A stretch of 64,000 nucleotides of DNA from Pseudomonas sp. B21-028 (lineage in GTDB: Bacteria > Pseudomonadota > Gammaproteobacteria > Pseudomonadales > Pseudomonadaceae), in NCBI RefSeq assembly GCF_024749045.1, contig NZ_CP087184.1, forward strand, positions 1,860,001 through 1,924,000, in the 5' to 3' direction. Below, piece by piece: positions 205 through 21,285 of this stretch; position 1 is the first letter of the stretch; each line of letters begins with the position of its first letter. The notes below the pieces were generated by a model. It searched no databases and was not told where the DNA came from. It saw only the letters and a list, made by a program, of their open reading frames with translations. The position numbers were made by a program, and so were the translations under genes.

Positions 205-216
205 ATGGAGAGTTGG

Positions 217-1547: not shown

Positions 1548-2498
<951 letters not shown>

Positions 2499-2568
2499 CA
2501 GAACGAGGTAGCACGGGTGGCCTTGCGCCACCTGTTTTCATATTTCCCAAGCAGGATCTCGAGCCAGG

Positions 2569-4461: not shown

Positions 4462-5033
4462 ACTACTATCAGCACCCAAGCGCGATTGTCGATGAGGGCG
4501 CGCAGATCGGTGAAAACTCCCGTGTCTGGCACTTTGTCCATGTTTGCGGGGGGGCCCGGATCGGTGCCGGCGTTTCGCTCGGCCAGAATGTGTTTGTGGG
4601 GAACAAGGTTGTGATCGGCGACCGCTGCAAGGTCCAGAACAATGTATCAGTCTACGATAATGTCACGCTGGAGGAGGGCGTGTTCTGTGGCCCCAGCATG
4701 GTCTTCACCAATGTCTATAACCCTCGTTCGCTGATCGAGCGCAAGGACCAATACCTCGATACGCTGGTAAAAAAGGGCGCTACGCTTGGCGCCAATTGCA
4801 CCATCGTCTGCGGCGTCACCATTGGTGAATATGCCTTCGTCGGTGCTGGCGCTGTCATCAACAAGGATGTACCAGCCTATGCATTGATGGTGGGCGTACC
4901 TGCACGGCAGATTGGCTGGATGAGCGAATTTGGCGAGCAACTGCAGTTGAACGAGCAGGGCGAGGCCTTCTGTTCGCATACGGGGGCGCGTTACGTGCTG
5001 AACGGAAAACTTTTGAACAAGATGGATGCCTGA
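4458..5033 (+). CDS. wbpD: UDP-2-acetamido-3-amino-glucuronate N-acetyltransferase WbpD
   Basis: Acetylates the 3-amino group made by WbpE, giving UDP-2,3-diacetamido-2,3-dideoxy-D-glucuronic acid. The 191-residue protein is a left-handed beta-helix acetyltransferase with hexapeptide repeats through most of its length (for example [20 protein letters not shown], then [21 protein letters not shown]). The ATG overlaps the wbpC stop, and wbpE follows after two bases, so the three genes are tightly coupled. Family and synteny make the substrate assignment strong. Confidence 0.92.
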
Positions 5034-5035
5034 GC

Positions 5036-6118
5036 ATGATTGAATTCATTGACCTGAAAAGCCAGCAAGCACGTATCAAGGACAAGATAGACGCCGGCAT
5101 CCAGCGTGTCTTGAGCCACGGCCAGTACATTCTTGGCCCAGAAGTGCAGGATCTGGAGGGTCGCCTGGCCGCCTTTGTCGGCGCCACGTTTTGCATCAGT
5201 TGCGCCAACGGCACCGACGCTCTGCAGATCGTGCAGATGGCCCTGGGCATTGGCCCTGGCGACGAGGTGATCACTCCGGGCTTCACCTACATTGCTACTG
5301 CCGAAACAGCCGCCCTGCTGGGGGCCAAGCCTGTATATGTGGACATCGACCCACGTACCTACAACCTTGATCCGCAGTTGCTCGAAGCGGCGATTACGCC
5401 GCGTACGAAGGCGATTATTCCAGTATCGCTGTATGGGCAATGTGCTGACTTTGATGCGATCAACGCTATTGCTGCCAAATACGGCATTCCGGTGATCGAG
5501 GACGCGGCGCAGAGCTTTGGCGCTTCGTACAAAGGCAAGCGCTCGTGCAACCTTACGACCGTTTCCTGCACCAGCTTCTTCCCTAGTAAGCCGTTGGGTT
5601 GCTATGGTGATGGTGGCGCGATCTTTACCAATGATGAAGCGTTGGCCACCGTTATTCGCCAGATTGCCCGGCACGGTCAGGATCGCCGTTATCACCACAT
5701 CCGGGTTGGGGTGAACAGCCGGCTGGATACCCTGCAAGCAGCTATTCTGCTGCCTAAGCTTGAAATCTTCGAAGAGGAGATTGCGCTGCGTCAGCAAGTG
5801 GCGGGTTGGTACGATGTGGCCCTCAAACAGGCGGGCGTCGAGACTACCCCTTTCATCGATGCAAGCAATATCAGCGCCTACGCGCAATATACTGTGCAAG
5901 TGGACGATCGGGATGCGTTGCAGAAACGACTGCAGGCCGCCGGCGTTCCGACTACCGTGCATTATCCGATCCCACTGAACAAGCAACCTGCAGTGGCGGA
6001 CGAAGCATCGTCGTTGCCAGTTGGTGACAAGGTTGCCACTCGCGTGATGAGTCTGCCTATGCATCCCTATCTGGACAAGTCTTCCATCGATACCATTTGT
6101 GCTGCGTTGACGAGCTGA
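5036..6118 (+). CDS. wbpE: UDP-3-keto-sugar aminotransferase WbpE (DegT/DnrJ/EryC1/StrS)
   Basis: PLP-dependent transamination of the 3-keto product of WbpB, using glutamate in characterised homologues. The 360-residue protein has the PLP lysine in SFFPSKPLGCYGDGG at Lys185, the position reported for PAO1 WbpE, and the IEDAAQSFG segment that packs on the cofactor. It follows wbpD by two bases. A remnant of a wzy gene starts almost directly after its stop codon. Confidence 0.93.
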   Translation: MIEFIDLKSQQARIKDKIDAGIQRVLSHGQYILGPEVQDLEGRLAAFVGATFCISCANGTDALQIVQMALGIGPGDEVITPGFTYIATAETAALLGAKPVYVDIDPRTYNLDPQLLEAAITPRTKAIIPVSLYGQCADFDAINAIAAKYGIPVIEDAAQSFGASYKGKRSCNLTTVSCTSFFPSKPLGCYGDGGAIFTNDEALATVIRQIARHGQDRRYHHIRVGVNSRLDTLQAAILLPKLEIFEEEIALRQQVAGWYDVALKQAGVETTPFIDASNISAYAQYTVQVDDRDALQKRLQAAGVPTTVHYPIPLNKQPAVADEASSLPVGDKVATRVMSLPMHPYLDKSSIDTICAALTS

Positions 6119-6121
6119 CGG

Positions 6122-6387
6122 ATGTGCATACTCGCTCGGGTCGACAGGTCTGTCCTGCTGAATACCGTTTTGGTTATCTCCCGCTTTGCCGTTGCTCTGT
6201 GGGTAAACACTCATTACATATTTTTTCTCCATGAGTATATGGGCGCAGCCAACAAGTCTATCAATGTCGGGCTCTATCTGTTGATTCTGGCGTTTGCCTG
6301 CGGGGCTGTGTGGCGGAGGGATTCGCAGGCTCGGCGATTCTCCGTGCTTATCTCCTCCCCGTTCAAGATATCTTGGAGTGTGAGGCG
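6122..6387 (+). pseudogene. wzy: Remnant of the ancestral O-antigen polymerase gene wzy (5' end only)
   Basis: An 89-codon frame opens with MCILARVDRSVLLNTVL and continues with a hydrophobic segment to about residue 65. This resembles the start of PAO1 Wzy as I remember it (MYILARVDRSILLNTVL), and it sits in the same slot, between wbpE and wzx. A full polymerase is about 430 residues with 12-14 membrane segments, so roughly the last 80% is missing. The tail after about residue 67 is hydrophilic and basic and looks like out-of-frame read-through. The gene cannot encode a working polymerase. A candidate replacement lies at 16658-17836. Homology is from memory and needs an alignment. Confidence 0.72.
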
Positions 6388-7623
6388 ATGAGCGCAATCT
6401 TCATCAAACGCGTGGCGCGAGTACTGGTGGGCACGCTTGGCGCTCAACTGATTACCATCGGCGTCACCCTGCTGCTGGTTCGCCTGTATTCCCCAGCCGA
6501 AATGGGCGCTTTTAGTGCCTGGCTTTCGTTCGCTACCATCTTTGCGGTGATGGTCACCGGGCGATATGAGTTGGCAATTTTCGCCACTAAAGCGGAAGGT
6601 GATTTTCATGCCGTGATCAAGCTCGTATTGCTACTCGTCCTGTCAATTTCCATTTTGGTAGCTGGCAGTCTCGTGCTGGCAGTGCCTTTTATGGATTCAC
6701 TGCCAGCCGTACTGAAAGATTATTGGTTGGCCCTGGCAATCGTTTCGTTGGGCTTAGGCGCAAACAAACTGGTCTTGTCTCTCCTTACCTTCCAGCAGTC
6801 CTTCAACAGGCTGGGGGGCGCGCGCGTCAGCCTTGCTGCCTGCATCGCGGTCGCCCAAGTGTCCGCGGCTTATTTATCAGGCGGTGTCTCGGGTCTTATT
6901 TACGGTCAATTGTTCGGCGTCATCGTTGCCACGGCGCTGGCAGCTATCTGGGTTGGTAAGCCGTTGATCGTAGCCTGTGCCGTGACGCCTTGGCGTACGG
7001 TGAGGCAAAACGCGGTGAAGTACATAAACTTCCCCAAGTATTCCTTGCCGGCAGATCTGATCAATACGGTCGCCAGCCAGATTCCGATCGTGCTGTTGGC
7101 AGCGAAGTTCGGCGGGGAGAGTGCGGGCTGGTTCGCTTTAACACTGAAGATCATGGGCGCTCCTATTTCCCTGCTAGCCGCCTCGGTACTTGATGTCTTC
7201 AAGGAGCAAGCTGCCCGTGACTATCGAGAAGCGGGAAACTGCCGTGGCATCTTCATCAAGACCTTCAAGCTACTCGCAGTACTGGCGCTCCCCCCCTTCG
7301 TAGCTTTCTGGTTCGTAGGTGAGTGGGCGTTCGGTTTCATATTCGGCGACGCCTGGGCTGAATCAGGGCGCTATGCGGTGGTGATGATTCCGCTGTTCTA
7401 CATGCGGTTCGTCGTCAGCCCCCTAAGCTACACGATCTATATCGCGCAGCGGCAGAATCTGGACCTGGTGTGGCAACTGACCCTGTTGGCCTTGACGTTT
7501 ATCTGTTTCACCCTGCCGGATACCGTGGATTCGGTGCTGTGGTTCTACTCCATGGGCTATGCAATCATGTATTTCATTTATTTCTGGATGTCCTTCTACT
7601 GCACCAAGGGAGATGCCAAGTGA
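6388..7623 (+). CDS. wzx: O-antigen flippase Wzx (polysaccharide transporter family)
   Basis: Integral inner-membrane protein of 411 residues expected to flip the undecaprenyl-linked O-unit to the periplasm. It shows about twelve hydrophobic segments and the usual MOP-family N-terminus (long amphipathic start, then LVRLYSPAEMGAF). The start is the ATG at 6388 with GGAG at 6375-6378. An upstream in-frame extension to 6310 overlaps the wzy remnant and is rejected. The stop overlaps the GTG start of hisH. Position matches wzx in the O5 cluster. Confidence 0.88.
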   Translation: MSAIFIKRVARVLVGTLGAQLITIGVTLLLVRLYSPAEMGAFSAWLSFATIFAVMVTGRYELAIFATKAEGDFHAVIKLVLLLVLSISILVAGSLVLAVPFMDSLPAVLKDYWLALAIVSLGLGANKLVLSLLTFQQSFNRLGGARVSLAACIAVAQVSAAYLSGGVSGLIYGQLFGVIVATALAAIWVGKPLIVACAVTPWRTVRQNAVKYINFPKYSLPADLINTVASQIPIVLLAAKFGGESAGWFALTLKIMGAPISLLAASVLDVFKEQAARDYREAGNCRGIFIKTFKLLAVLALPPFVAFWFVGEWAFGFIFGDAWAESGRYAVVMIPLFYMRFVVSPLSYTIYIAQRQNLDLVWQLTLLALTFICFTLPDTVDSVLWFYSMGYAIMYFIYFWMSFYCTKGDAK

Positions 7624-8228
7624 TCGTTGTTGTTGATTATGGTGTAGGGAACATCGCTTCGGTCTTGAACATGCTGAAGCGAGTGGGCGCTAAAGCCAAG
7701 GCATCGAACAGCCGTGAGGATATCGAACAGGCGGACAAACTCATCCTACCAGGAGTGGGCGCTTTCGACGCTGGCATGCAGACACTGCGCAAAAGCGGCC
7801 TGATCGAGGTGTTGAATGAGCAGGTGCTGCGCAAGCAAAAGCCGGTAATGGGTGTATGCCTCGGCAGCCAGATGCTCGGCAATGGCTCTGAGGAGGGCTG
7901 CGAGCCTGGCCTTGGCTGGATCGACATGGACATTGTCCGCTTCGAGAAGCGTGAAGGGCGCAAGGTGCCGCACATGGGTTGGAACGAAGTTGCTCCTCAG
8001 TTGCAGCACCCAATTCTGACGGGTATCAACCAGCAGAGCCGTTTCTATTTTGTCCACAGTTATTACATGTTGCCGCGACATGCGGAGAACACTTTGCTGA
8101 CCGCTAACTACGACCAACAGTTTACCGCCGCAGTGGTCAAGGACAATATTTTGGGATTCCAATTCCATCCGGAAAAAAGCCACAAATTTGGTATGCAATT
8201 ATTCAAGAATTTCGTGGAGTTGGTCTGA
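7620..8228 (+). CDS. hisH: Glutamine amidotransferase HisH paralogue of the O-antigen locus
   Basis: Class I glutaminase of 202 residues that should release ammonia for WbpG. The nucleophile lies in GVCLGSQ (Cys80), and the His-Glu pair in FQFHPEKS. The start is GTG at 7620, overlapping the wzx stop. Frames opening further upstream lie inside wzx and are discarded. In PAO1 the equivalent pair (called hisH2/hisF2) is not needed for histidine synthesis; it works with WbpG to form the acetamidino group on the mannuronic acid. The neighbours hisF and wbpG support that role here. Confidence 0.93.
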   Translation: MIVVVDYGVGNIASVLNMLKRVGAKAKASNSREDIEQADKLILPGVGAFDAGMQTLRKSGLIEVLNEQVLRKQKPVMGVCLGSQMLGNGSEEGCEPGLGWIDMDIVRFEKREGRKVPHMGWNEVAPQLQHPILTGINQQSRFYFVHSYYMLPRHAENTLLTANYDQQFTAAVVKDNILGFQFHPEKSHKFGMQLFKNFVELV

Positions 8229-8983
8229 TGGTCAGGAAGCGCGTAATTCCCTGCTTGTTGCTTAAGGATCGCGGCCTGGTCAAAACCGTGAAATTCAAAG
8301 AACCGAAGTACATCGGCGACCCCATTAATGCCATCCGGATCTTCAACGAGAAGGAAGTCGATGAGCTGGTGTTGCTCGATATTGAAGCTTCGAAACTCAA
8401 CCGTGAGCCCAACTACGAATTGATCGCCGAGGTAGCGGGTGAGTGTTTCATGCCCATTTGCTATGGGGGTGGGATCAAAACTCTGGAGCATGCAGAGAAA
8501 GTGTTTGCCCTCGGTATCGAGAAAATTTCCATTAACACGGCTGCATTCGCCGACATTTCGCTGATCCGGCAAATCGCCAACAAGTTCGGGTCGCAAAGTG
8601 TCGTGGGGGCCATGGATTGCCGGAAGGGCTTCTGGGGCGGGTATTCTGTATACTCGGAAAATGGTACGAAAGATACCAAGCATTCTCCGGTCGAATGGGC
8701 CCAAGCGCTTGAGGCGGCAGGGATTGGCGAAATCTTCCTGAATTCAGTCGACCGTGACGGCACACAAAAGGGCTTTGATGGTGCGCTGGTAGAAAGCGTT
8801 GTTTCGGAGGTGCACGTACCTGTCATCGCTTGTGGTGGTGCAGGTTCCACGGCGGATCTGATCGAGCTTTTTGACCGTACTGGCATTTCTGCCGTGGCGG
8901 CAGGCAGCCTTTTTGTTTTCCACGGTAAGCATCGCGCCGTACTGATCAGCTATCCAGATATCAACATGTTGAGTGCTGGATAA
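8228..8983 (+). CDS. hisF: HisF paralogue, ammonia-channelling partner for WbpG
   Basis: A (beta/alpha)8 barrel of 251 residues, with YGGGIKTLEHAEK and GGAGSTADLIELF phosphate-binding loops. In true HisF the catalytic Asp11 follows IxCL near the N-terminus; here the aligned residue is Leu (VIPCLLLKD), while the second Asp of the cyclase (AMDCRKG, about residue 130) is kept. This suggests loss of the imidazole-glycerol-phosphate cyclase reaction with retention of the HisH interface and ammonia tunnel. It overlaps hisH by one base. Function in sugar amidination is inferred from synteny with PAO1. Confidence 0.92.
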   Translation: MVRKRVIPCLLLKDRGLVKTVKFKEPKYIGDPINAIRIFNEKEVDELVLLDIEASKLNREPNYELIAEVAGECFMPICYGGGIKTLEHAEKVFALGIEKISINTAAFADISLIRQIANKFGSQSVVGAMDCRKGFWGGYSVYSENGTKDTKHSPVEWAQALEAAGIGEIFLNSVDRDGTQKGFDGALVESVVSEVHVPVIACGGAGSTADLIELFDRTGISAVAAGSLFVFHGKHRAVLISYPDINMLSAG

Positions 8984-9127
8984 GCAAAACTGAGATTTCT
9001 CAAGGCAGCGTCTATTGGAGGCCCTTGGGCTTTACAGGCTCTTCGCTGCTTTGATTGTCATACAAATCGAGCCTACTGCTGGGTTGCCCAGTCAGGCAGG
9101 CCGACGAAGACGTTTTGGAGGTGGGTA

Positions 9128-10261
9128 GTGGTAAAGGTCTGTTCGCGCTGTGTCATGGATACATCCGACTCTGAAATCGTGTTCGACGATGCGGGAGTGT
9201 GCAATCACTGCCACAAGTTCGACAATGTTCAATCCAAGCAACTGTTCGCTGATGCTAGCGGCGAACAGCGCCTCCAGAAGATCGTCGATCAGATCAAGAA
9301 CGAGGGGACCGGAAAAGAGTACGACTGCATCATTGGTCTTAGCGGCGGTGTGGACAGCTCCTACTTGGCCCTGAGGGTTAAGGACTTCGGGTTACGTCCC
9401 CTTGTGGTGCATGTGGATGCAGGCTGGAATAGCGAGCTGGCTGTCAGTAACATCGAAAAAGTTATCAAGTATTGCGGGTATGACCTGCATACCCATGTGA
9501 TGAACTGGGAAGACGTTCGCGATCTGCAATTGTCTTATATGAAGGCCGCCGTTGCTAACCAAGACGTGCCGCAAGATCACGCATATTTTTCTAGTATGTA
9601 CCATTTTGCCGTGCAGAATAATATCAAATATATCTTGAGTGGTGGGAACCTCGCGACTGAAGCAGTGTTTCCTGATACCTGGCATGGTAGTGCGATGGAC
9701 GCTATCAATCTCAAGGCAATTCATAAGAAATATGGTGAGCGGCCTTTGCAAGATTACAAAACTATCAGTTTTTTGGAGTATTACCTCTGGTATCCCTTCG
9801 TCAAAGGTATGCGGACTGTACGCCCGCTTAATTACATGAATTATGACAAGTCTAAGGCGGAATTATATTTGCAGGAGACGATTGGCTATCGCTCCTATGC
9901 CCATAAACATGGAGAGTCTATTTTTACGAAGCTGTTTCAAAATTATTATCTTCCCAAAAAGTTTGGTTATGATAAGCGAAAGTTGCATTATTCCAGTATG
10001 ATCCTCTCTGGTCAGCTGACTCGTAAAGAAGCTCTTGAGAGGCTGGCGCAACCATTGTATGCCGTTGATGAGCTGCAGTATGATATCGAGTATTTTTGTA
10101 AAAAAATGCGAATATCTACTTCGGAATTTGAAGTGTTAATGAATGCGCCTATACATGATTACTCTGATTTTCATAATTGGGATTCGCGCCAAAGTTGCAT
10201 GAAAAAATTTCAGGGAGTAGTTCAGCGGATTCTGGGTAGACGCATAAATGTTTACTCTTGA
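9128..10261 (+). CDS. wbpG: N-acetyl sugar amidotransferase WbpG
   Basis: ATP-dependent enzyme of 377 residues expected to convert the 3-acetamido group of the UDP-mannuronic acid to 3-acetamidino, with ammonia from HisH/HisF. Near the N-terminus it has paired cysteines (CSRCVMD and CNHCHKF), probably a metal site, then the PP-loop [11 protein letters not shown] for ATP activation. The start is GTG 9128 with GGAGGTG at 9117-9123. The second half is richer in A+T than the first. It lies 144 bases after hisF in a gap where I see no other feature. Confidence 0.92.
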
Positions 10262-12490: not shown

Positions 12491-13713
12491 AGAATGTCTG
12501 GATTTTTAACCACTACGCGCAAGAACCAGGTGGCGCAGGTGGCACGCGTCACTATCAACTGGCGAAAAATTTGCCTGCCTATGGTTGGAAGGCTTCAATT
12601 ATCGCTGCCAGTGTAGAGCATCAGTCTGGCCGACAGCGTCTTGACGTTTCTGAAGCCGTCAGGCTTGATGAGTATGCTGGCATTCCGTTTCTGTGGCTAA
12701 AAACGTCTGAGTACAAGGGCAATGGTACCGCGCGAATGCGCAACATGCTCGAATACACTTGGCAGGTTGTTAAGCCTGGTAGGCTTTCCGCCCTGAACAA
12801 ACCTGATGTCATCATTGGATCTAGCGTTCATCCTTTTGCAGCAGCCGCTGGAGCCATTCTTGCTTGGCGACATAATGTGCCTTTCGTATTCGAAGTGCGG
12901 GATCTGTGGCCGGAAACGCTGATCGATATGGGGCGGTTGGGACGCAACAGCATGATCGCTCGGACGCTTCGTGTTTTGGAGAAGTGGCTTTATAAGCGTG
13001 CGAAGCGGATTGTTGTGCTGCTGCCCAAGGCGCATGAATACATAGTGCCTATGGGCATTGATGCGAAGAAGATCGCCTGGATTCCCAACGGCGTCGATCT
13101 CCAGGATTTTCCTCGTCCAGAGGATAAGGTGGCCGGAGATGGGTTCACGCTTATGTATTTCGGAGCTCATGGTCCAGCCAATGGATTGGATAATGTTCTA
13201 CGTGCGCAACACATCATCGAAGAAAATCCCGAAATGTCGCATGTTCAGCTACGGATTATTGGCAATGGCCCGTGCAAGGCCGAATTGATTGCCTTGGCTG
13301 GAGAGCTGGGCCTCAAACGCGTCAGTTTTGAAGACCCTGTTCCCAAGCGCGAGATACCGGCGTTGGCCGCGCAGGCGGACGCGTTTGTTTTCAACCTGAT
13401 TAACGCTCCAGTGTTCAAATACGGAATCAGTTCAAACAAATTGTTTGATTTCATGGCTGGCCAGCGTCCGGTTCTGTTCTGCTGTGATGCGGGCAACAAC
13501 CCCATCGAAGATTCTGGTTCCGGATTTACGGTCGAGCCAGGCAACCCCAAGGCGCTAGCTGACGCGGTCACCAGGCTGTCCAGTCTGACGACTGCCGAGC
13601 GAATGGCCATGGGGAATGCGGGAAGGCACTACGTAGAAGTCGAGCATGGTTTCGACAAGCTTGCAGGAAGTTTGGCGCATTGTTTGAATGAAGCCTGTGA
13701 GACCAGCAGATGA
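12487..13713 (+). CDS. wbpJ: O-antigen glycosyltransferase WbpJ (GT4 family)
   Basis: GT-B glycosyltransferase of 408 residues, probably adding the second mannuronic acid derivative. The N-terminus (HYAQEPGGAGGTRHYQLAK) and the EVRDLWPET motif are typical of this GT4 subgroup; the donor domain contains IPNGVDL and SNKLFDFMAGQRPVL. It overlaps wbpI by four bases and the next gene by four. In PAO1 wbpK and wbpL follow; here they are replaced by a pglC/pglD/aminotransferase set. Confidence 0.86.
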   Translation: MKNVWIFNHYAQEPGGAGGTRHYQLAKNLPAYGWKASIIAASVEHQSGRQRLDVSEAVRLDEYAGIPFLWLKTSEYKGNGTARMRNMLEYTWQVVKPGRLSALNKPDVIIGSSVHPFAAAAGAILAWRHNVPFVFEVRDLWPETLIDMGRLGRNSMIARTLRVLEKWLYKRAKRIVVLLPKAHEYIVPMGIDAKKIAWIPNGVDLQDFPRPEDKVAGDGFTLMYFGAHGPANGLDNVLRAQHIIEENPEMSHVQLRIIGNGPCKAELIALAGELGLKRVSFEDPVPKREIPALAAQADAFVFNLINAPVFKYGISSNKLFDFMAGQRPVLFCCDAGNNPIEDSGSGFTVEPGNPKALADAVTRLSSLTTAERMAMGNAGRHYVEVEHGFDKLAGSLAHCLNEACETSR

Positions 13714-14300
13714 AGAGAGTCGTTGATTTTGCCGGAGCCCTTATGGGCTTGATCATTTTGTCACCGATTATAGTAGTCGTGGCAATATTGATAAAGCACA
13801 AGCTGGGAGGGCCCGTGTTATTCCGGCAGGTTCGCCCCGGACGTGAGGGTAAGCCTTTTAAGATGATCAAATTCCGCACCATGCGTGATGCTTACGACCA
13901 CAATAATGTTCCGCTGCCCGATGCACAGCGTATGACCCCGTTCGGTAGTTTCCTACGTTCCAGCAGTCTGGACGAATTGCCGGAGCTGTGGAACGTACTT
14001 AAAGGCGACATGAGCCTCGTAGGACCTAGACCGCTGTTGATGGAATATCTTCCGCTCTATAACGAGCGACAATACCTTCGGCATAGAGTAAGGCCAGGCG
14101 TTACCGGTTGGGCACAGATCAATGGGCGAAACGCTTTAAGCTGGCCGGAGAAGTTCGAACTGGATGTCTGGTATGTGGAAAATCGTTCTTTTTGGCTAGA
14201 TCTGCAAATCATCGCGTTGACGGTTAAGAAAGTTATGAAGAAAGATGGTATTAGCGCTAGTGGAGAGGCCACTATGTCAAAGTTCACGGGCAATAAGTAA
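13710..14300 (+). CDS. pglC: Polyprenyl-phosphate sugar-1-phosphate transferase, PglC type
   Basis: Monotopic phosphoglycosyltransferase that should load the first sugar onto undecaprenyl phosphate. The 196-residue protein has one N-terminal hydrophobic re-entrant segment (about 5-28), then KFRTM, the catalytic Asp-Glu dyad in LDELPEL (Asp88, Glu89), and the signature GDMSLVGPRPL. Size equals PglC of Campylobacter, not the longer WbaP/WcaJ type. Starts inside the wbpJ stop and overlaps the next gene by one base. Context (PglD- and PglE-like genes, WbpM) suggests UDP-diNAc-bacillosamine as substrate. This is inferred; UDP-FucNAc cannot be excluded. Confidence 0.85.
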   Translation: MKRVVDFAGALMGLIILSPIIVVVAILIKHKLGGPVLFRQVRPGREGKPFKMIKFRTMRDAYDHNNVPLPDAQRMTPFGSFLRSSSLDELPELWNVLKGDMSLVGPRPLLMEYLPLYNERQYLRHRVRPGVTGWAQINGRNALSWPEKFELDVWYVENRSFWLDLQIIALTVKKVMKKDGISASGEATMSKFTGNK

Positions 14301-14920
14301 TGAAAAAACTTGCAATCCTTGGTGCAAGTGGGCATGGGAAAGTGGTCGCCGATACCGCTGAATATTGCGGGTGGGAAGATATTACTTTCTTCGATGATGC
14401 ATGGCCTTCCGTCACTAGTATTGGCGTTTGGGCTGTGATTGGTACTTGCAGCCAGTTACTTGAGCGGGTCCGTGAGTTTGACGGGATAATTGTAGCTATT
14501 GGTAATAATGCTGTTCGCCAGACCAAGCAGGCTGCACTCACTCAGCGTGGCGCTATTTTACTGACGCTGATCCATCCTTCCGCTTATGTCAGCTGCCACG
14601 CGACGGTAGGGGCGGGTACCGTGATATTTGCTGGAGCTGTTCTCAATGCCGGTGCCAGAGTGGGGCTGGGCGGGATTCTGAATACAGGGTGTAGTGTCGA
14701 TCACGACTGCGTTCTAGGTGATTTCGTTCATATCAGCCCTGGTGCCCGGCTCGCCGGTGGGGTCGTGGCAGGAGATCGCAGCTGGGTAGGCATAGGTGCG
14801 TGCGTAAAGCAAATGCTGACCATCGGTGCCGCCGGGGTAGTGGGGGCCGGGGCTGCTGTCGTGGCAGATGTGGCAGAGGGTCTGACAGTGGTTGGCGTTC
14901 CGGCGCGGGTTCTAAAATAA
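14300..14920 (+). CDS. pglD: Sugar O/N-acyltransferase, PglD/NeuD family
   Basis: Likely acetyl-CoA-dependent N-acetyltransferase acting on a UDP-4-amino sugar. The 206-residue protein has the PglD architecture: an N-terminal Rossmann-like domain (LGASGHGKVVADTAE), then a left-handed beta-helix with hexapeptide repeats and the general-base histidine in the VDHDC motif. It overlaps the pglC-like gene by one base, and the aminotransferase gene follows after 79 bases. Together they match the order and content of bacillosamine loci. The precise sugar is inferred from context. Confidence 0.83.
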   Translation: MKKLAILGASGHGKVVADTAEYCGWEDITFFDDAWPSVTSIGVWAVIGTCSQLLERVREFDGIIVAIGNNAVRQTKQAALTQRGAILLTLIHPSAYVSCHATVGAGTVIFAGAVLNAGARVGLGGILNTGCSVDHDCVLGDFVHISPGARLAGGVVAGDRSWVGIGACVKQMLTIGAAGVVGAGAAVVADVAEGLTVVGVPARVLK

Positions 14921-14999: not shown

Positions 15000-16193
15000 A
15001 TGTTGAATACCCCCTTTTCTCCATGGCCATCTTTCTCTGAAGAAGAGGCAAACTGTGCTCGCGATATCATTCTGTCCAACAAGGTAAATTATTGGACCGG
15101 GGAGGAGTGCCGCCAATTTGAACGAGAGTTTGCCGATTGGGCCGAGACTGATTATGCGGTCGCAGTGGCCAATGGTACGGTAGCGCTCGACTTGGCGCTG
15201 CAGGCGCTGGATATTGGCGCTGGTGATGAAGTAATTGTGACTTCCCGAACCTTTTTGGCCTCTGTTTCCTGCATCGTTAATGCCGGTGCCATCCCTGTGT
15301 TTGCGGATGTAAATGCGGATTCGCAGAATATTGATGCGTCAACCATCAAGGCAGTCCTGTCTCCTCGTACCAAAGCCATCATCTGCGTTCACCTTGCCGG
15401 ATGGCCTTGTGATATGGATCCCATCATGGCCTTGGCGACTGAGCACGGGGTCCGAGTAATTGAGGACTGTGCACAGGCGCATGGTGCCCGATATAAAGGC
15501 AAGGCGATCGGGTCGATAGGCCATATCGGTGCTTGGTCGTTCTGTCAGGACAAGATCATGACTACTGCCGGTGAAGGTGGCATGGTTACGACGAATGATC
15601 GTGAACTTTGGGCCAAGATGTGGTCGTTCAAGGATCATGGAAAGAGCTGGGAAGCCGTGTATGAGCGACAGCATGCCCCAGGATTCCGTTGGCTGCACGA
15701 GAGCTTTGGCACCAACTGGAGAATGCTGGAGGTACAAGGCGGAATTGGCAGGATTCAGCTGAAACGGATGCCTCAATGGCATCAGTCGCGGTTGGCTAAC
15801 GCTCGCCGTATCTGGGATTGCGCCAAGGCTTTGCCGGGGTTGCGTGTTCCTGAAATTCCCAGCGACAGCGTGCATGCAGCGTACAAGTGTTATGTCTTCG
15901 TAGAGTCGGATCAACTCGCAGACGGGTGGGATCGGGACCGGATTCTTGGCGAGATCAGCGCTCGCGGCGTGCCTTGCTTTTCGGGTTCATGTTCAGAGGT
16001 CTATTTGGAGAAGGCTTTCGACAATACGCCCTGGCGACCCGAGGAGAGCTTGCCAGTGGCAGCGCGACTTGGAGAAACAAGCCTGATGTTCTTGGTTCAT
16101 CCTACGCTGACGGACGCCGAAATGGCCAAAACTTGCGACGTCTTGACAATGGTCATGCGCCACGCCGCTGGAAAATGCAATCTATCCAGATGA
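15000..16193 (+). CDS. UDP-4-keto sugar aminotransferase, PglE-like (DegT/DnrJ/EryC1/StrS)
   Basis: PLP-dependent aminotransferase of 397 residues. The PLP lysine lies in SFCQDKIMTTAGEGG, and IEDCAQAHGA is the cofactor-packing segment. It is distinct in sequence from WbpE in the same cluster. Next to pglC- and pglD-like genes, the best fit is amination at C4 of the 4-keto sugar produced by WbpM, as PglE does. A frameshifted wbpM 3' end starts almost at its stop codon, which indicates that this gene once sat directly before another wbpM copy. Confidence 0.82.
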   Translation: MLNTPFSPWPSFSEEEANCARDIILSNKVNYWTGEECRQFEREFADWAETDYAVAVANGTVALDLALQALDIGAGDEVIVTSRTFLASVSCIVNAGAIPVFADVNADSQNIDASTIKAVLSPRTKAIICVHLAGWPCDMDPIMALATEHGVRVIEDCAQAHGARYKGKAIGSIGHIGAWSFCQDKIMTTAGEGGMVTTNDRELWAKMWSFKDHGKSWEAVYERQHAPGFRWLHESFGTNWRMLEVQGGIGRIQLKRMPQWHQSRLANARRIWDCAKALPGLRVPEIPSDSVHAAYKCYVFVESDQLADGWDRDRILGEISARGVPCFSGSCSEVYLEKAFDNTPWRPEESLPVAARLGETSLMFLVHPTLTDAEMAKTCDVLTMVMRHAAGKCNLSR

Positions 16194-16657: not shown

Positions 16658-17836
16658 ATGATTATTAAGCCGCCCTTTTTAATGATTGTGCAATATCTGT
16701 TTGCCTTGTTATTTCCAGGGACTATTCTGTATTATGTCGCTGTTACAAGCCATGTAATGCCTCCTCTTGTTAGTGGCTACTTTGGTGCAATTTGCGTTCT
16801 GTCATTGCTCATACTGTTTCCATTAAGCGTTTGGAATGTACTGCGAGGTGGGAGAGTGGAGCGCGTAGCGTTTTCATATATGCTGTTTTTATTGTTTTTC
16901 ACCGCAATTGTCATTTGGAATGGGCTGTTTGGTGATTCTAGCGTTATGACTTGGCATCTGGTTTCAGTTCTGCAAAGTTTGACGGTATTTATGTTGTGTA
17001 AAAGAGTCTTCTCGTATTCTGTAGGAACTTCTCGCATTATTTTGCTTTGTTGGTTGGCAGCTTCTATATGCATGCTTACATTTACCGTAGATGGCCGATT
17101 CATGCTTCGAGCAATGGCCGATGACGTTGGTCAGATTCCTAGCTATCAAACGTTTGCGCTTTGCTATTTCATTGCAACAGTATTCATTGTTGGGTCTGTA
17201 ACAAATCGTCAGCTACGCATGGGTGTTCATGTTGTTGCGTTAGCCTGTTTATATATCAACTCTGCCAGGAGTGAGTTTGCTGGTTACGTTTTTTTTGCCT
17301 TGCTGTTGGAGTTTCTTTCTTACAGGAAGAAGCTCACTCCAGTTATTATTGGTGCAGTGGTTATAGGTTTGCTTTCTGTCATGCTGGCTACTGGTGGTGT
17401 TGTCATTCCGGAGAGCAGAATTGCAACTTTGGTTAACTTGGAAGAGGATAATTCGAACAGCGAGCGGGATAGAATGGCTCGCGAAGGTATGGAAAAAATA
17501 TTTAATAGCCCTATAGTTGGCGCGTACGGCGAATATGAAGAAGGCGGATATATTCATAATGTAATGTCGGTATGGCAAGAAACAGGTGTCGTTGGTGGGT
17601 TATTCTTTACTCTATTGGCTTTCCTTCCGCTCATTCAGGGGTGTGTAAATTATATTTTTGGTAGCTCAACGCACCACTCAAATATTGCTATTTCACTGCT
17701 CGCAACATCAATACTGCTTTTGATTGTAGGGAAGTACTTTACATACTTGATGCTTCCCGCGGCGTTGGCTATCTACGCGGCCTCTAAGCCTGGGAATCTT
17801 CGCGATCAAGCGAGTCTAAGCTCTGTACGAAAATAG
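16658..17836 (+). CDS. wzy: Candidate O-antigen polymerase Wzy (Wzy/WaaL-like membrane protein)
   Basis: Integral membrane protein of 392 residues with about ten hydrophobic segments. A periplasmic loop near residues 255-300 is followed by a GGYIHNVMSVWQETGVVGG stretch, which resembles the H-N...E-G region near the last membrane helices in O-antigen ligase/polymerase proteins. Since the ancestral wzy slot (6122-6387) holds only a remnant and no other polymerase is visible, this is the best candidate Wzy for the altered O-unit. The gene is clearly A+T-rich compared with the flanking chromosome, suggesting transfer. An O-antigen ligase is the main alternative, but waaL normally lies in the core locus. 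Confidence 0.7.
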   Translation: MIIKPPFLMIVQYLFALLFPGTILYYVAVTSHVMPPLVSGYFGAICVLSLLILFPLSVWNVLRGGRVERVAFSYMLFLLFFTAIVIWNGLFGDSSVMTWHLVSVLQSLTVFMLCKRVFSYSVGTSRIILLCWLAASICMLTFTVDGRFMLRAMADDVGQIPSYQTFALCYFIATVFIVGSVTNRQLRMGVHVVALACLYINSARSEFAGYVFFALLLEFLSYRKKLTPVIIGAVVIGLLSVMLATGGVVIPESRIATLVNLEEDNSNSERDRMAREGMEKIFNSPIVGAYGEYEEGGYIHNVMSVWQETGVVGGLFFTLLAFLPLIQGCVNYIFGSSTHHSNIAISLLATSILLLIVGKYFTYLMLPAALAIYAASKPGNLRDQASLSSVRK

Positions 17837-18233
17837 CTCGTGATTACCGCAGGAGCACGCCAGTTAAGCCATCAAAAAGCTATGTTGCGATGGTATGCTG
17901 CCCGCGGTCCTTGCGGCAGCTATTTTCGTTAAAAGCGAAAGATCCACGCAGAGATGAATTTTAGTTTTGCACGTGCAATATATACCAAGTGCCAATGGCA
18001 TAAAGAATTTTTGATCAAAACATGGGCGACCGATGAAATGTAGAGACTTTCTTATTTCTGCAGAAGTAGTCGCCACTCTTTGGCGACTCCTTTCATTCGT
18101 AGATTAATGCCGCCAGCATACTTACGATTGTATGCGTCCGGTCAAGTCATCTATCCAACCCCGCAACGCGAGGACATGGTGTGCACTTAAATTTAAGTGG
18201 GCACCCAGTTCTAGCCTTTTAAGCGGGTATATC
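17837..18233 (+). other. Gene-free A+T-rich stretch between wzy and IS66 remnant
   Basis: No supported coding region. The only structure I see is an inverted repeat at 18068-18088: eight-base arms AGTCGCCA and TGGCGACT around a five-base loop. It could end the wzy transcript, although only a short T-rich tail follows. The sequence just before 18234 may include the left end of the IS66 remnant, but I could not define a terminal repeat. Confidence 0.4.
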
Positions 18234-18735
18234 ATGCAGCCAATACGCCGTTTCTATTCCAGATCCTTCAAGGCTCAGGTCATTCAAGAGTGTGCCCAGC
18301 CCGGCGCCTCGATTGACAGCATCGCCCTCAGCCATAACCTTAACGCAAACCTCGTCCACAAATGGATTCGAGTGCAAGCGCAGCAAAGCACGGCGCTCCA
18401 ATTCACGTTTAAGCTATCGCCTATCTTTATCTTCGCAACGCTAATGTGCAACGTTGGTCTGGTAATCGCATAGCTCAGGTCTATGGCAAACATCACAACG
18501 AAAACCGTTATAATGGTCCGTATCTGCCGAGCCAAAAAACAAAACAATTATTGCTATATAAAAAATTTTTTGACGCCGTTCGTCACATATTTAGAGCTGC
18601 GACAAGCAGAAGCTACAACAAGAGTCGGATGGGCTGTTGGTATCAATAAATGAAACCTCTAGTCGTGACTGCGTCACATACTTGAAAGACATGCCATATG
18701 CGCAGTCGATGGCCGATTACGAAGCATTGCTGCCG
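18234..18735 (+). mobile_element. Remnant of an IS66-family insertion sequence
   Basis: A frame opening at 18234 (MQPIRRFYSRSFKAQVIQEC, then ASIDSIALSHNLNANLVHKW) is the start of an IS66-type TnpA accessory protein, recognisable to about 18405 before it runs into unrelated sequence. At 18670-18735 a second segment reads DYEALLP, followed by a stop where a Trp codon is usual, matching the C-terminus of an IS66 TnpC transposase. Almost all of tnpB and tnpC is missing. No terminal inverted repeats or target duplication were found. It lies immediately before the truncated wbpL and plausibly caused its disruption. Confidence 0.68.
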
Positions 18736-18745
18736 TAGAACTGGA

Positions 18746-19176
18746 CACCAGAGATACTACGGTAAACTAAAGTCTTACGCTGGATGGTGGGGTTTATGGA
18801 TCGCGTTCGTCGGCATTCTCCTAAGCCTGCTAGCGCTACAGACGGCTCGGGTGTCATCCAGGCTGCTTTGGGTCTGGTTGATTCTGCTAGATGTCGTTAT
18901 TGTCGATGCAACTGTTACTTTATTACGACTTCTGCTACGAAGCGAAAAATCTACGAGGCTCATCGGATCCATGCTTATCAGTTTGCCTCCCACCAATATG
19001 GTCGGCATCTACCGGTGACGGCGGCGGTGGCGTCGATTAATATGTTCTGGTTGTTGCCGCTGGCAGCATGTGTCGTATTATGGAATGTGGATAGAATGTT
19101 GGCTTTAATCATTGCCTACGTGCCTTCGGTACTGCTGGCCGTCAGCATCTCATGCTGGCGTGTTGAGAAGGCATGA
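18746..19176 (+). pseudogene. wbpL: Truncated and frameshifted wbpL (ancestral initiating glycosyltransferase)
   Basis: Two adjacent frames together give the C-terminal third of a WbpL/WecA-type (MraY superfamily) transferase. Frame one: WWGLWIAFVGILLSLLALQ and then VDATVTLLRLLLRSEK. Frame two: KIYEAHRIHAYQFASHQYGR, then HLPVTAAV and a final membrane segment. The switch occurs at the A-run 18945-18949, consistent with loss of one A. The 5' two thirds, including the metal-binding loops, are absent, and IS66 debris lies upstream. It cannot be functional. A PglC-type enzyme at 13710-14300 probably replaces it. Homology is recognised from family motifs. Confidence 0.75.
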
Positions 19177-19290
19177 TTTAAAGGTAAAAATTCGCATTTT
19201 TTGTTTATGGGGTGTCCATCGTTCGATGACGGAGCCGCGTCCATTGAGATCGGATTGGGTTTAGGAGAGGCCGTGGTGCATGAAGGATTT

Positions 19291-21285
19291 ATGGGTAAAT
19301 TAAGAACAGCGTTGCTGGGATTGCCAAGACGCCACAAGCGGGCGATTCAGGTAGCTACAGACGTAATCCTAGTCTGGGTCGCGCTATGGCTCGCATTTGT
19401 GGTTCGTCTCGGAGTCGAGGCGTTAGCCACTCCGATCGAAACGCACCTTTGGCTTTTCGTATCCGCCCCGCTGGTCGCCATTCCGATTTTCATCCGTTTC
19501 GGCATGTACCGCGCCGTCATGCGTTACTTCGGCAACGACGCATTGATTACCATTTGTAAAGCGGTCAGCCTTTCTGCCCTGCTGTTATCCTTGGTGGTGT
19601 ATTGGTACAGCAACCATAAAACGGTCGTACCCCGCTCGATCATCTTCAATTACTGGTGGTTGAGCCTGATCATGATTGGCGGCCTTCGGCTGATGATGCG
19701 TCAGTATTTCCTGGGAGACTGGTTCACTGCTGCCCAGCATGTCCCGTTTACCAACCGTAACGACGGCTTGCCCAAGGTTGCTATTTATGGGGCCGGGGCC
19801 GCGGGAAACCAACTGGTGGCAGCGTTGCGCATGGGGCGGGTAATGCGGCCAGTCGCGTTCATTGACGATGACAACAGCATCGCAGACCGTGTCATCGCCG
19901 GGCTTCAGGTCTACGAGCCCAAGCAGATTCAAAAGATGATCGATGCAACGGGGGCGCAGGAAATCCTACTGGCAATACCTTCGTCGTCTCGTGGTCGTCG
20001 TCGAGAGATCTTGACCTTGCTTGAGGGGTTCCCGCTGCATGTACGTAGTGTCCCGGGTTTCATGGACCTGGCCAGTGGCCGCGTCAAGGTTGATGACATT
20101 CAGGAAGTAGATATCGCGGACTTGCTCGGACGTGACCCGGTACCTGCGCAACCTGATTTGCTCGAGCATTGCATCACCGGGCAGTCGGTTCTGGTCACCG
20201 GGGCAGGCGGGTCAATCGGTTCGGAGCTCTGCCGGCAGATCCTGGCCCTCAAACCCACCACACTACTGTTGTATGAACATAGCGAGTTCAACCTTTACAG
20301 CATTTTGTCCGAACTTGAACCACGGACTACTCGGGAGTCCCTGTCTGTTCGTTTACTGCCCATATTGGGTTCGGTACGGGATCAGGCCAAGCTATTGGAT
20401 GTGATGAAGACCTGGAATGTCGATACGGTCTATCACGCTGCTGCTTATAAACATGTCCCCATGGTCGAGCACAATATTGCCGAGGGCGTTCTGAACAATG
20501 TGATCGGAACGTTGAACACCGCCCAGGCTGCATTGCAGGCAGGTGTATCGAACTTCGTCTTGATCTCCACTGATAAAGCCGTACGCCCCACCAACGTGAT
20601 GGGCAGTACCAAGCGGCTCGCGGAGTTGACGTTGCAGGCCCTCAGTCGTGAGCTGGCGCCCGTATTGTTCGGCGACAACGCCAATGTATCTCGAGTTAAC
20701 AAGACTCGTTTTACCATGGTCAGGTTCGGCAACGTGTTGGGATCGTCCGGTTCGGTTATCCCCTTGTTCCATAAACAAATCAAATCCGGCGGGCCGTTGA
20801 CCGTTACACACCCGAAGATCACGCGTTATTTCATGACGATTCCCGAGGCAGCACAGTTAGTGATTCAGGCAGGCTCGATGGGGCTGGGTGGCGATGTGTT
20901 CGTTCTCGATATGGGCGAACCGGTAAGAATTGTCGAACTGGCGGAGAAAATGATTCACTTGTCTGGCTTGAGTGTCCGCTCGGAGAAGAATCCCCACGGC
21001 GACATTTCAATCAAGTTCACGGGCCTACGGCCCGGTGAGAAGCTTTACGAGGAGTTGCTGATTGGTGACAACGTTGTTGCCACCCAGCATCCCATGATCA
21101 TGAGTGCCAATGAAGATCATCTTCCCTGGGATGTGCTCAAGGCCAGGCTGGCTGAGCTGCTGGCCGCGATTGAGCACGATGACTACACCCGGGTCCGCCA
21201 ATTGCTTCGGGATACTGTCAGCGGGTATGCCCCGGACGGTGAGATTGTCGACTGGATCTACCAGCAACGACGCCTTGAGCCCTGA
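19291..21285 (+). CDS. wbpM: UDP-GlcNAc 4,6-dehydratase WbpM (membrane-bound, PglF/FlaA1 family)
   Basis: Inner-membrane nucleotide-sugar 4,6-dehydratase making UDP-4-keto-6-deoxy-GlcNAc. Four N-terminal membrane segments (within residues 15-130) are followed by a Rossmann-like domain and then the extended SDR domain with TGAGGSIGSELCRQI. The active-site segment is STDKAVRPTNVMGSTKR, where Met occupies the usual catalytic Tyr position, as in this family. From ATG 19291 the protein is 664 aa, matching PAO1 WbpM. GTG 19276, with AGGAG eight bases upstream, is a real alternative start. It should feed the PglE/PglD-like enzymes here. As in P. aeruginosa, it closes the cluster. Confidence 0.93.
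   Translation: MGKLRTALLGLPRRHKRAIQVATDVILVWVALWLAFVVRLGVEALATPIETHLWLFVSAPLVAIPIFIRFGMYRAVMRYFGNDALITICKAVSLSALLLSLVVYWYSNHKTVVPRSIIFNYWWLSLIMIGGLRLMMRQYFLGDWFTAAQHVPFTNRNDGLPKVAIYGAGAAGNQLVAALRMGRVMRPVAFIDDDNSIADRVIAGLQVYEPKQIQKMIDATGAQEILLAIPSSSRGRRREILTLLEGFPLHVRSVPGFMDLASGRVKVDDIQEVDIADLLGRDPVPAQPDLLEHCITGQSVLVTGAGGSIGSELCRQILALKPTTLLLYEHSEFNLYSILSELEPRTTRESLSVRLLPILGSVRDQAKLLDVMKTWNVDTVYHAAAYKHVPMVEHNIAEGVLNNVIGTLNTAQAALQAGVSNFVLISTDKAVRPTNVMGSTKRLAELTLQALSRELAPVLFGDNANVSRVNKTRFTMVRFGNVLGSSGSVIPLFHKQIKSGGPLTVTHPKITRYFMTIPEAAQLVIQAGSMGLGGDVFVLDMGEPVRIVELAEKMIHLSGLSVRSEKNPHGDISIKFTGLRPGEKLYEELLIGDNVVATQHPMIMSANEDHLPWDVLKARLAELLAAIEHDDYTRVRQLLRDTVSGYAPDGEIVDWIYQQRRLEP

What the first reader, a model, noticed from the sequence alone, without database searches (positions are those of the whole stretch)
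18746..19176. wbpL is dead; the initiating enzyme has switched class
The remnant is the C-terminal third of a polytopic WecA-like transferase, broken by a one-base deletion in an A-run. A monotopic PglC-type transferase is intact at 13710-14300. The two enzyme classes are unrelated, so this locus appears to record a change of initiating glycosyltransferase, and probably of first sugar, within one O-antigen cluster.
Basis: partly seen in the sequence, partly recalled or inferred. Interest (0 to 1): 0.75.

Follow-up and report, generated by a model that had tools for sequence, protein, structure and literature searches.

The report
O-antigen starter enzyme swap, with fossil
This Pseudomonas replaced most of its O-antigen gene cluster, including the enzyme that starts the sugar chain, and a broken end of the old starter gene (wbpL) was left behind beside wbpM.

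Summary
The window is the O-specific-antigen locus (himD-wzz…wbpM) of a Pseudomonas with a 6.49-Mb, one-contig genome. At 18803-19167 lie two out-of-frame pieces of WbpL, profile positions 217-265 and 263-338 of 340 (E 3.5e-12, 7.6e-25). The larger lesion is the missing N-terminal two-thirds; IS66-type relics abut the break. No other WbpL was found: the only PF00953 protein is MraY. A complete PglC stands at 13710 with PglD, PglE and WbpM, which predicts UDP-diNAcBac (QuiNAc4NAc) as first sugar; this is inferred.

New here: (1) the nearest genome in my tree, G124, keeps intact wbpL-wbpM, the fossil's best match, so WbpL is ancestral; the upstream cluster instead resembles a PglC cluster in G084. 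(2) WbpL is absent from 32 of 149 sampled Pseudomonas genomes, with at least 12 changes of state on the tree. (3) Five unnamed loci hold intact PglC and WbpL together, and two named Pseudomonas carry other wbpL fossils between pglE and wbpM. (4) WbpL-less genomes rarely keep an ABC-type O-antigen exporter domain (2 of 32, against 70 of 117).

Two initiator classes in one locus are known in Acinetobacter capsules.

The parts
205..1530 (+). WbpA/WbpO-like UDP-sugar dehydrogenase; first gene after wzz (wzz and himD lie just upstream, locus L104)
   Evidence: TIGR03026 E 6.6e-124; rpsA, ihfB/himD and Wzz confirmed by family models
1548..6118 (+). WbpB-like oxidoreductase, SGNH acyltransferase, WbpD-like acetyltransferase, WbpE-like aminotransferase (ManNAc3NAcA-type pathway with WbpA and WbpI)
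   Evidence: Pfam and NCBIfam; pathway assignment recalled from P. aeruginosa O5
6310..7623 (+). Wzx-like flippase
   Evidence: PF13440 E 2.1e-15
7623..10261 (+). HisH-, HisF- (AglZ/HisF2) and WbpG/WbuX-like amidation genes
   Evidence: NCBIfam TIGR01855, NF038364, TIGR03573
10258..13713 (+). GT4-type glycosyltransferase, UDP-GlcNAc 2-epimerase (WbpI-like), second GT4-type glycosyltransferase
13710..14300 (+). PglC-type monotopic phosphoglycosyl transferase, intact; proposed O-unit initiator
   Evidence: PF02397 E 5.5e-68; PglC structure 8g1n E 2.7e-72 over residues 1-195
14300..14920 (+). PglD-type sugar N-acetyltransferase
   Evidence: TIGR03570 E 2.4e-61, above cut-off; 4m98 E 1.1e-44, 3bss E 3.4e-31
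15000..16193 (+). PglE-type aminotransferase
   Evidence: 7l7x (Pcryo_0638) E 1.3e-181 over residues 1-383
16658..17836 (+). putative Wzy polymerase
   Evidence: PF04932 E 2.3e-4, below the family's cut-off; position; weak
18130..18401 (+). left-end fragment of an IS66-type element with a piece of tnpA
   Evidence: NF047595 E 1.6e-15, below its cut-off, on ORF 18132-18473; 87.5% over 272 bp to the left end of a 3762-bp repeat with an IS66 transposase gene, present twice elsewhere in this genome
18415..18549 (-). inverted fragment, 79% to the start of a Wzz-domain ORF elsewhere in this genome
   Evidence: PF02706 E 3.4e-6, above cut-off, for that ORF
18664..18765 (+). tail of an IS66-type TnpC transposase, ending about 40 bp before recognisable wbpL
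   Evidence: 73-74% DNA over 80-102 bp to L146, L140, L033, L111; in L033 and L140 this stretch is the C-terminus of an IS66 transposase; own TnpC only 35% over 46 aa, E 0.008
18803..18949 (+). wbpL remnant, piece 1
   Evidence: WbpL profile 217-265, E 3.5e-12; 73% over 48 aa to WbpL of G124
18940..19167 (+). wbpL remnant, piece 2 (other frame)
   Evidence: WbpL profile 263-338, E 7.6e-25; 68% over 76 aa to WbpL of G124
19177..19290 (+). wbpL-wbpM spacer; length within the range of intact loci
   Evidence: profile end 123 bp before wbpM, against 35-123 bp in intact loci; the 486-bp match to G124 runs through it, though alone it gives no hit at 1e-5
19291..21285 (+). WbpM/PglF-type UDP-GlcNAc 4,6-dehydratase
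   Evidence: PF02719 E 6.7e-124; PglF (WlaL) 5bju E 4.8e-82; 94% aa identical to G124 WbpM

Best explanation
In this lineage almost the whole O-specific-antigen cluster between wzz and wbpL was replaced by a horizontally acquired cluster that brought its own initiating enzyme. The old module (4-reductase plus WbpL, feeding on the WbpM product) was lost. Only the 3' end of wbpL, its spacer and wbpM stayed, because the junction fell inside wbpL, next to IS66-type sequence. Today WbpM makes the 4-keto sugar, PglE and PglD convert it to UDP-QuiNAc4NAc (diNAcBac), and the monotopic PglC loads that sugar on undecaprenyl phosphate; the two GT4 enzymes add ManNAc3NAcA/ManNAc3NAmA-type sugars before Wzx/Wzy export. 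Shown: the wbpL remnant and its break, no other WbpL found, intact PglC, the mosaic homology, and WbpL as the state of G124. Inferred: first sugar, that PglC is the working initiator, the role of IS66, and the timing.
For: Remnant in two frames and no other WbpL. Locus identity by flanks. PglC, PglD, PglE and WbpM homology to characterised enzymes; PMC8040287 (abstract and passages) reports that Pcryo_0638 and Pcryo_0637 carry out the amination and acetylation steps to UDP-2,4-diacetamido-2,4,6-trideoxy-D-glucose. Mosaic: wbpE to pglE, 11 of 11 genes are 68-84% identical in DNA to G084 contig C75 (wbpE and wzx over part of their length) and none matches G124, while rpsA, himD and wzz (98%, 97%, 82% aa), the wbpL remnant (74% DNA over 341 bp) and wbpM (81% DNA; 70% to G084) match G124 (wbpA, wbpB, AT3, wbpD and wzy match neither, the fetched G084 stretch starting inside wbpE). 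Nearest genome keeps reductase-type gene, WbpL and WbpM. Recurrence: 32 of 149 genomes have one PF00953 hit only, and 27 of these 32, this one included, have a short monotopic transferase within 10 kb upstream of wbpM on the same strand.
Against: No chemistry or expression data. A second monotopic transferase (G000:C1:4418439) exists at another locus beside an epimerase and a weak tyrosine-autokinase-like ORF and might act here. Wzy is weakly supported. The remnant is not strongly decayed: 73% and 68% identity to G124 WbpL with WbpM at 94%, where an intact WbpL pair has 71% with WbpM at 91% and another 97% at 98%; differences by codon position are 35/15/60 in 124 codons, against for example 33/12/75 and 30/19/82 in intact pairs, only slightly relaxed. 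So loss of function rests on truncation and frameshift. The frameshift alone could be a sequencing error; the truncation could not easily be. G084, source of the cluster match, is 7% contaminated and is a relative of the donor at best.
Confidence: 0.84

Rival explanations
1. The locus went through a two-initiator stage (PglC, PglD, PglE, WbpL, WbpM all intact) and wbpL then decayed in place, rather than being cut by the same recombination that brought PglC.
For: Such dual loci exist: L110, L113, L114, L115, and L111 with PglC on the opposite strand, all with full-length WbpL matches. Two named Pseudomonas, L029 and L042, carry shorter wbpL 3' ends between pglE and wbpM.
Against: In the window Wzy, IS66 pieces and an inverted fragment separate PglE from the remnant; nothing of WbpL's first 216 positions was found; homology to G124 starts abruptly beside an IS66 tail.
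Confidence: 0.35
2. The wbpL 3' end is kept for a purpose, for instance as promoter or leader of wbpM.
For: Three loci keep the 3' end before wbpM (window, L029, L042).
Against: Promoter-like sites do not exceed shuffles (2 found, 2.6 expected); L042 is itself frameshifted; 27 of the 35 PglC loci show no wbpL match at all (L027 and L120 are probably one genome).
Confidence: 0.06
3. The locus is silent: with wbpL broken no O-antigen is made, and PglC serves something else, such as protein glycosylation.
For: PglC, PglD and PglE homologues serve protein glycosylation in Campylobacter and Neisseria (recalled; PDB names).
Against: PglC lies in one run of complete ORFs with Wzx, GT and WbpI genes between himD-wzz and wbpM; a PglC with PglD and/or PglE and WbpM recurs in the Pseudomonas O loci. 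I did not search for an oligosaccharyltransferase.
Confidence: 0.08

Closest known systems
P. aeruginosa WbpL-dependent OSA locus (himD-wzz…wbpK-wbpL-wbpM)
   Same: Same chromosomal place and borders; wbpM kept; wbpL end in its usual place just upstream of wbpM
   Different: WbpL broken, no 4-reductase found in the locus, initiation by PglC with PglD and PglE
A. baumannii KL8/KL9 capsule loci with ItrA3 plus WbpL-like ItrB2 (Hu et al. 2013, PMC3628348, passages read)
   Same: A short ItrA (compared with PglB/PglC in the paper's figure legend) and a WbpL-like initiator side by side, the WbpL-like one judged redundant and a remnant of a past event
   Different: Capsule, not Pseudomonas O-antigen; itrB2 is not described as broken; no pre-swap relative or repeated losses in the passages read
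C. jejuni PglF-PglE-PglD-PglC (diNAcBac) pathway
   Same: Homologous dehydratase, acetyltransferase and monotopic transferase, and an aminotransferase of the same superfamily
   Different: Protein N-glycosylation rather than O-antigen (recalled); the aminotransferase here is nearest to Psychrobacter Pcryo_0638, whose ligand binding differs from PglE on the same substrate (PMC8040287, abstract and passages read)
P. protegens multi-cluster O-polysaccharides sharing one WbpL (PMC10715155, PMC9213528, passages read)
   Same: Same genus and OSA locus; shows WbpL as common starter for unlinked clusters
   Different: There WbpL is intact and needed

Membership tests
PglC-type small monotopic phosphoglycosyl transferase | Bac_transf (PF02397) domain as the whole protein, about 200 aa, without the N-terminal extension of WcaJ/WbaP | tested here: met
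   196 aa, PF02397 residues 2-177; aligned 1-195 to PglC 8g1n
PglC-type small monotopic phosphoglycosyl transferase | Asp-Glu catalytic pair and Ser-Pro break of the re-entrant helix (motif roles recalled) | tested here: met
   SSLDELPEL and LSPII align with the DE and SP of 8g1n
PglC-type small monotopic phosphoglycosyl transferase | UDP-diNAcBac as substrate | not testable with these tools
   Only context: PglD, PglE and WbpM beside it
WbpL/WecA polytopic transferase (the remnant) | Sequence match over the C-terminal part | tested here: met
WbpL/WecA polytopic transferase (the remnant) | Catalytic PF00953 region in one open frame | tested here: not met
   Profile positions 1-216 not found, two frames; remnant, not a working member
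UDP-diNAcBac (QuiNAc4NAc) pathway | 4,6-dehydratase, 4-aminotransferase and 4-N-acetyltransferase present together | tested here: met
   WbpM/PglF 4.8e-82, Pcryo_0638 1.3e-181, PglD-type 4m98 1.1e-44 and 3bss 3.4e-31
UDP-diNAcBac (QuiNAc4NAc) pathway | Product stereochemistry shown | not testable with these tools
   needs enzyme assay or NMR
Pseudomonas OSA locus | Borders himD/wzz and wbpM, with Wzx and Wzy | tested here: met
   Wzy only weakly (PF04932 below cut-off)
IS66 family relic at the break | tnpA start, TnpC tail and terminal repeats | tested here: inconclusive
   tnpA and left end clear; TnpC tail clear by relatives but perhaps of another IS66 element; right end not proven

The most novel reading that the evidence does not exclude
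WbpL is a shared hub in Pseudomonas, so an incoming O-cluster with its own PglC-type starter makes WbpL dispensable only if no other WbpL-dependent polysaccharide remains. Loss of WbpL is then gated by loss of the ABC-exported O-polysaccharides, giving a repeatable series: WbpL alone, both starters, PglC with a wbpL fossil, PglC alone. In P. sp. 6D_7.1_Bac1 (L032) wbpL even sits between two 96.5% identical wbpM copies, a direct repeat that could delete it in one step.
Probability: 0.4. Interest if true: 0.66.

Novelty: new variant of a known kind. Interest (0 to 1): 0.52.

Why it matters
WbpL has been described as found in all Pseudomonas strains examined and as generally conserved in function (PMC6804347, abstract and passages). 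Here 32 of 149 sampled Pseudomonas genomes lack it, and 27 of the 32 have a short monotopic transferase near wbpM. If that enzyme is the starter, this affects how O-antigen mutants are designed (wbpL deletion would not serve as an 'O-minus' tool in these species), how phage and tailocin receptors are predicted, and which first sugar to expect. The fossil, its nearest genome and the dual loci give a directly testable series for how a cell changes the first step of a surface pathway.

Tried and rejected
Promoter retained in the wbpL end: no excess over shuffles (2 against 2.6; terminator-like sites 4 against 1.8), rejected. Strong decay of the remnant as proof of age: controls (intact WbpL pairs) show WbpL evolves faster than WbpM anyway, so dropped as evidence. 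Spacer DNA conservation across species: too divergent (window against 16 others 40-55%, intact pairs 39-62%), uninformative except inside the match to G124. Finding the species name: not achieved; records of the window's own genome may be left out. Paper search for initiating glycosyltransferase plus P. fluorescens plus wbpM: no paper with 4 of 5 terms. Structure prediction was not used; homology to solved structures sufficed. The WbpL-dependent exporter test used Wzt_C (PF14524) only; I did not search Gmd/Rmd or wbpXYZ. In the 117 genomes with more than one PF00953 hit I searched only for close PglC, not for other monotopic transferases beside wbpM.

Full report
What is there. The 64-kb window lies at 1,860,001-1,924,000 of a one-contig Pseudomonas genome of 6,493,931 bp (genus from the named relatives and the O-locus layout). 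Just upstream are rpsA, ihfB/himD and wzz (confirmed by family models), preceded by genes I read by eye as serC, pheA, hisC, tyrA-aroA and cmk. The window then runs wbpA- to wbpM-like genes, so it is the O-specific-antigen (OSA) locus, whose usual borders in Pseudomonas are himD and wbpM (PMC4509608 and PMC8319346, passages).

The remnant. Between the putative wzy gene and wbpM, two pieces match a WbpL profile built from 11 intact relatives: 18803-18949 (positions 217-265, E 3.5e-12) and 18940-19167 (263-338 of 340, E 7.6e-25). They continue one another but are in different frames. Nothing was found that matches positions 1-216, which include the PF00953 catalytic region. The distance from the fossil's end to wbpM (123 bp) is at the top of the range in intact loci (35-123 bp).

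No other copy. PF00953 has one hit in the genome, a 369-aa MraY next to MurF (TIGR00445 and TIGR01143 above cut-off). The WbpL profile adds nothing but the two pieces and, weakly, MraY. PF02397 has two hits: the PglC here and a 247-aa protein at 4.418 Mb beside an epimerase-family gene and a weak tyrosine-autokinase-like gene, 42% identical to this PglC over 172 aa.

The intact starter. The ORF 13710-14300 is a full-length PglC relative, with the Asp-Glu pair and Ser-Pro break of PglC (motif roles recalled). Next to it are PglD and an aminotransferase nearest to Pcryo_0638 (E 1.3e-181), which was shown to act in making UDP-2,4-diacetamido-2,4,6-trideoxy-D-glucose (PMC8040287, abstract and passages). 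WbpM is a PglF relative. Together they predict UDP-QuiNAc4NAc. Of the locus ORFs scanned, only WbpM matches the PF01370 family in which a WbpK/WbpV-type reductase would fall, so FucNAc or QuiNAc is not expected from this locus alone; I did not look for such a reductase elsewhere in the genome.

Direction and mechanism. A tree of MraY+MurF codons from 68 of the 149 genus genomes puts G124 next to the window's genome (100*, 91% identity). The 68 are 31 of the 32 WbpL-less (G135 missing because its mraY was not located), the 6 with WbpL and close PglC, and 31 others whose mraY coordinates one search printed, so not a random sample. G124 has WbpL and WbpM preceded by a PF01370 protein, with NeuB-, ManC- and other genes upstream and no PglC-like hit in the 32 kb fetched. 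The fossil plus spacer matches G124's wbpL-wbpM junction best: 71% over 486 bp, 225 bits, next best 106. By gene, rpsA, himD and wzz match G124; wbpE to pglE match G084 contig C75 (68-84% DNA, 11 of 11 genes, two over part of their length) and not G124; the fossil and wbpM match G124 again. This is a mosaic with one junction after wzz and one inside wbpL. The latter is bordered by IS66-type pieces: a left end with tnpA start (18130-18401), an inverted Wzz-type fragment (18415-18549) and a TnpC tail (about 18664-18765). A 3762-bp repeat with an IS66 transposase gene is present twice elsewhere, 100% identical. IS66 involvement is likely but not proven.

How general. In 149 genus genomes, 32 have only one PF00953 hit. 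In 31 of these 32 the WbpL profile (E up to 0.001) finds only one weak place, within MraY, or, here, the fossil and MraY; G135 gave no match (MraY confirmed in the fetched stretches). Twenty-nine of the other 31 have a PF02397 hit, and 26 of 31 have a short PF02397 protein within 10 kb upstream of wbpM on the same strand. The five that do not: G092 (PglC and wbpM about 15 kb apart on opposite strands, L122), G042 (PglC-like gene and wbpM on different contigs), G154 (no wbpM hit), G087 and G145 (neither; both under 90% complete). A close PglC (E at most 1e-45) occurs in 23 of 149; 17 of these lack WbpL and 6 have it. In five of the six both intact genes sit in one locus (L110, L111 with PglC inverted, L113, L114, L115); in G084 they lie on different contigs (L112, L145; 7% contamination). 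WbpL presence changed at least 12 times on starred branches (14 on the best tree); the count cannot tell gain from loss.

Named genomes. Of the 15 loci titled Pseudomonas among the 80, one (L032) has intact WbpL, between two wbpM copies that are 96.5% identical over 1902 bp; two have wbpL fossils between PglE and WbpM (L029, P. sp. MMS21 TM103, positions 275-338, with a PglD-type gene between fossil and wbpM; L042, P. karstica, 286-313 and 309-339 in two frames); twelve show none (L033 is cut by a contig end). The two samples overlap: L027's contig has the same length as G060's C29.

The hub idea. In P. protegens, wbpL deletion removes OSA and OBC3 in CHA0, and medium and long O-PS (the profile being mostly OBC4 and OBC5) in Pf-5 (PMC10715155, PMC9213528, passages). 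If WbpL serves several clusters, it can be lost only where they are gone. As a proxy, the exporter domain Wzt_C (72 of 149 genomes at E up to 0.001, 71 over the cut-off) is found in 2 of 32 WbpL-less genomes (G053, G154) and 70 of 117 others (Fisher p 1.7e-8). In 12 independent pairs on the tree, Wzt_C goes the same way as WbpL in 5.6 on average and never the other way (median p 0.031, range 0.016-0.125). The two exceptions, and the three genomes with both starters but no Wzt_C (G084, G113, G122), show the rule is not strict. PglC against WbpL absence (17 of 23 against 15 of 126, Fisher p 3e-9) is weaker once kinship is allowed for (7.4 against 1.6 of 12, median p 0.11).

What is known. A. baumannii KL8/KL9 already show a short ItrA and a WbpL-like ItrB side by side, the latter called a remnant (PMC3628348, passages). 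For Pseudomonas, PMC6804347 (abstract and passages) states that WbpL was found in all strains analysed. In the listings of searches, and the passages I read, I saw no paper describing PglC-type initiation or wbpL fossils in Pseudomonas O loci; the library holds open-licence papers only.

Limits. The first sugar, the working initiator and the timing are inferred. The remnant is not much more diverged than intact WbpL pairs, which suits a fairly recent loss but does not date it. Absences in draft genomes can be gaps, although 28 of the 31 other WbpL-less genomes are at least 90% complete and at most 5% contaminated.

Noticed in passing
18415-18549 (- strand): Inverted fragment, 79% identical to the start of a 212-aa Wzz-domain ORF at G000:C1:854839-854973 (PF02706 E 3.4e-6), wedged between two IS66-type pieces.
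   Followed up: partly
L032:12647-17964: Pseudomonas sp. 6D_7.1_Bac1 has wbpM-wbpL-wbpM downstream of PglE; the wbpM copies are 96.5% identical over 1902 bp, a direct repeat flanking wbpL.
   Followed up: partly
L029:12627-13208: A second PglD-type acetyltransferase (PglD_N E 6.8e-19) lies between the wbpL fossil and wbpM in Pseudomonas sp. MMS21 TM103.
   Followed up: partly
L024, L140: Two wbpM genes near each other, diverged (75% and 73% DNA identity), without a wbpL match in the fetched stretch.
   Followed up: no
L130-L132, L135-L142: Eleven WbpL-less genomes carry a different monotopic transferase (38-50% identical to this PglC) close upstream of wbpM; its sugar is unknown.
   Followed up: partly
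L216:1796-5557 and L217:1592-5353: A 3762-bp repeat holding an IS66 transposase gene plus further ORFs, present twice with 100% identity in the window's genome.
   Followed up: partly
7470-7623: The listed hisH ORF overlaps the end of wzx; the family match starts at residue 52, so the real start is probably near 7623.
   Followed up: no
47706-48839: EarP (EF-P rhamnosyltransferase, PF10093 E 1.2e-155); the other nine downstream ORFs scanned there looked ordinary or had no family.
   Followed up: no
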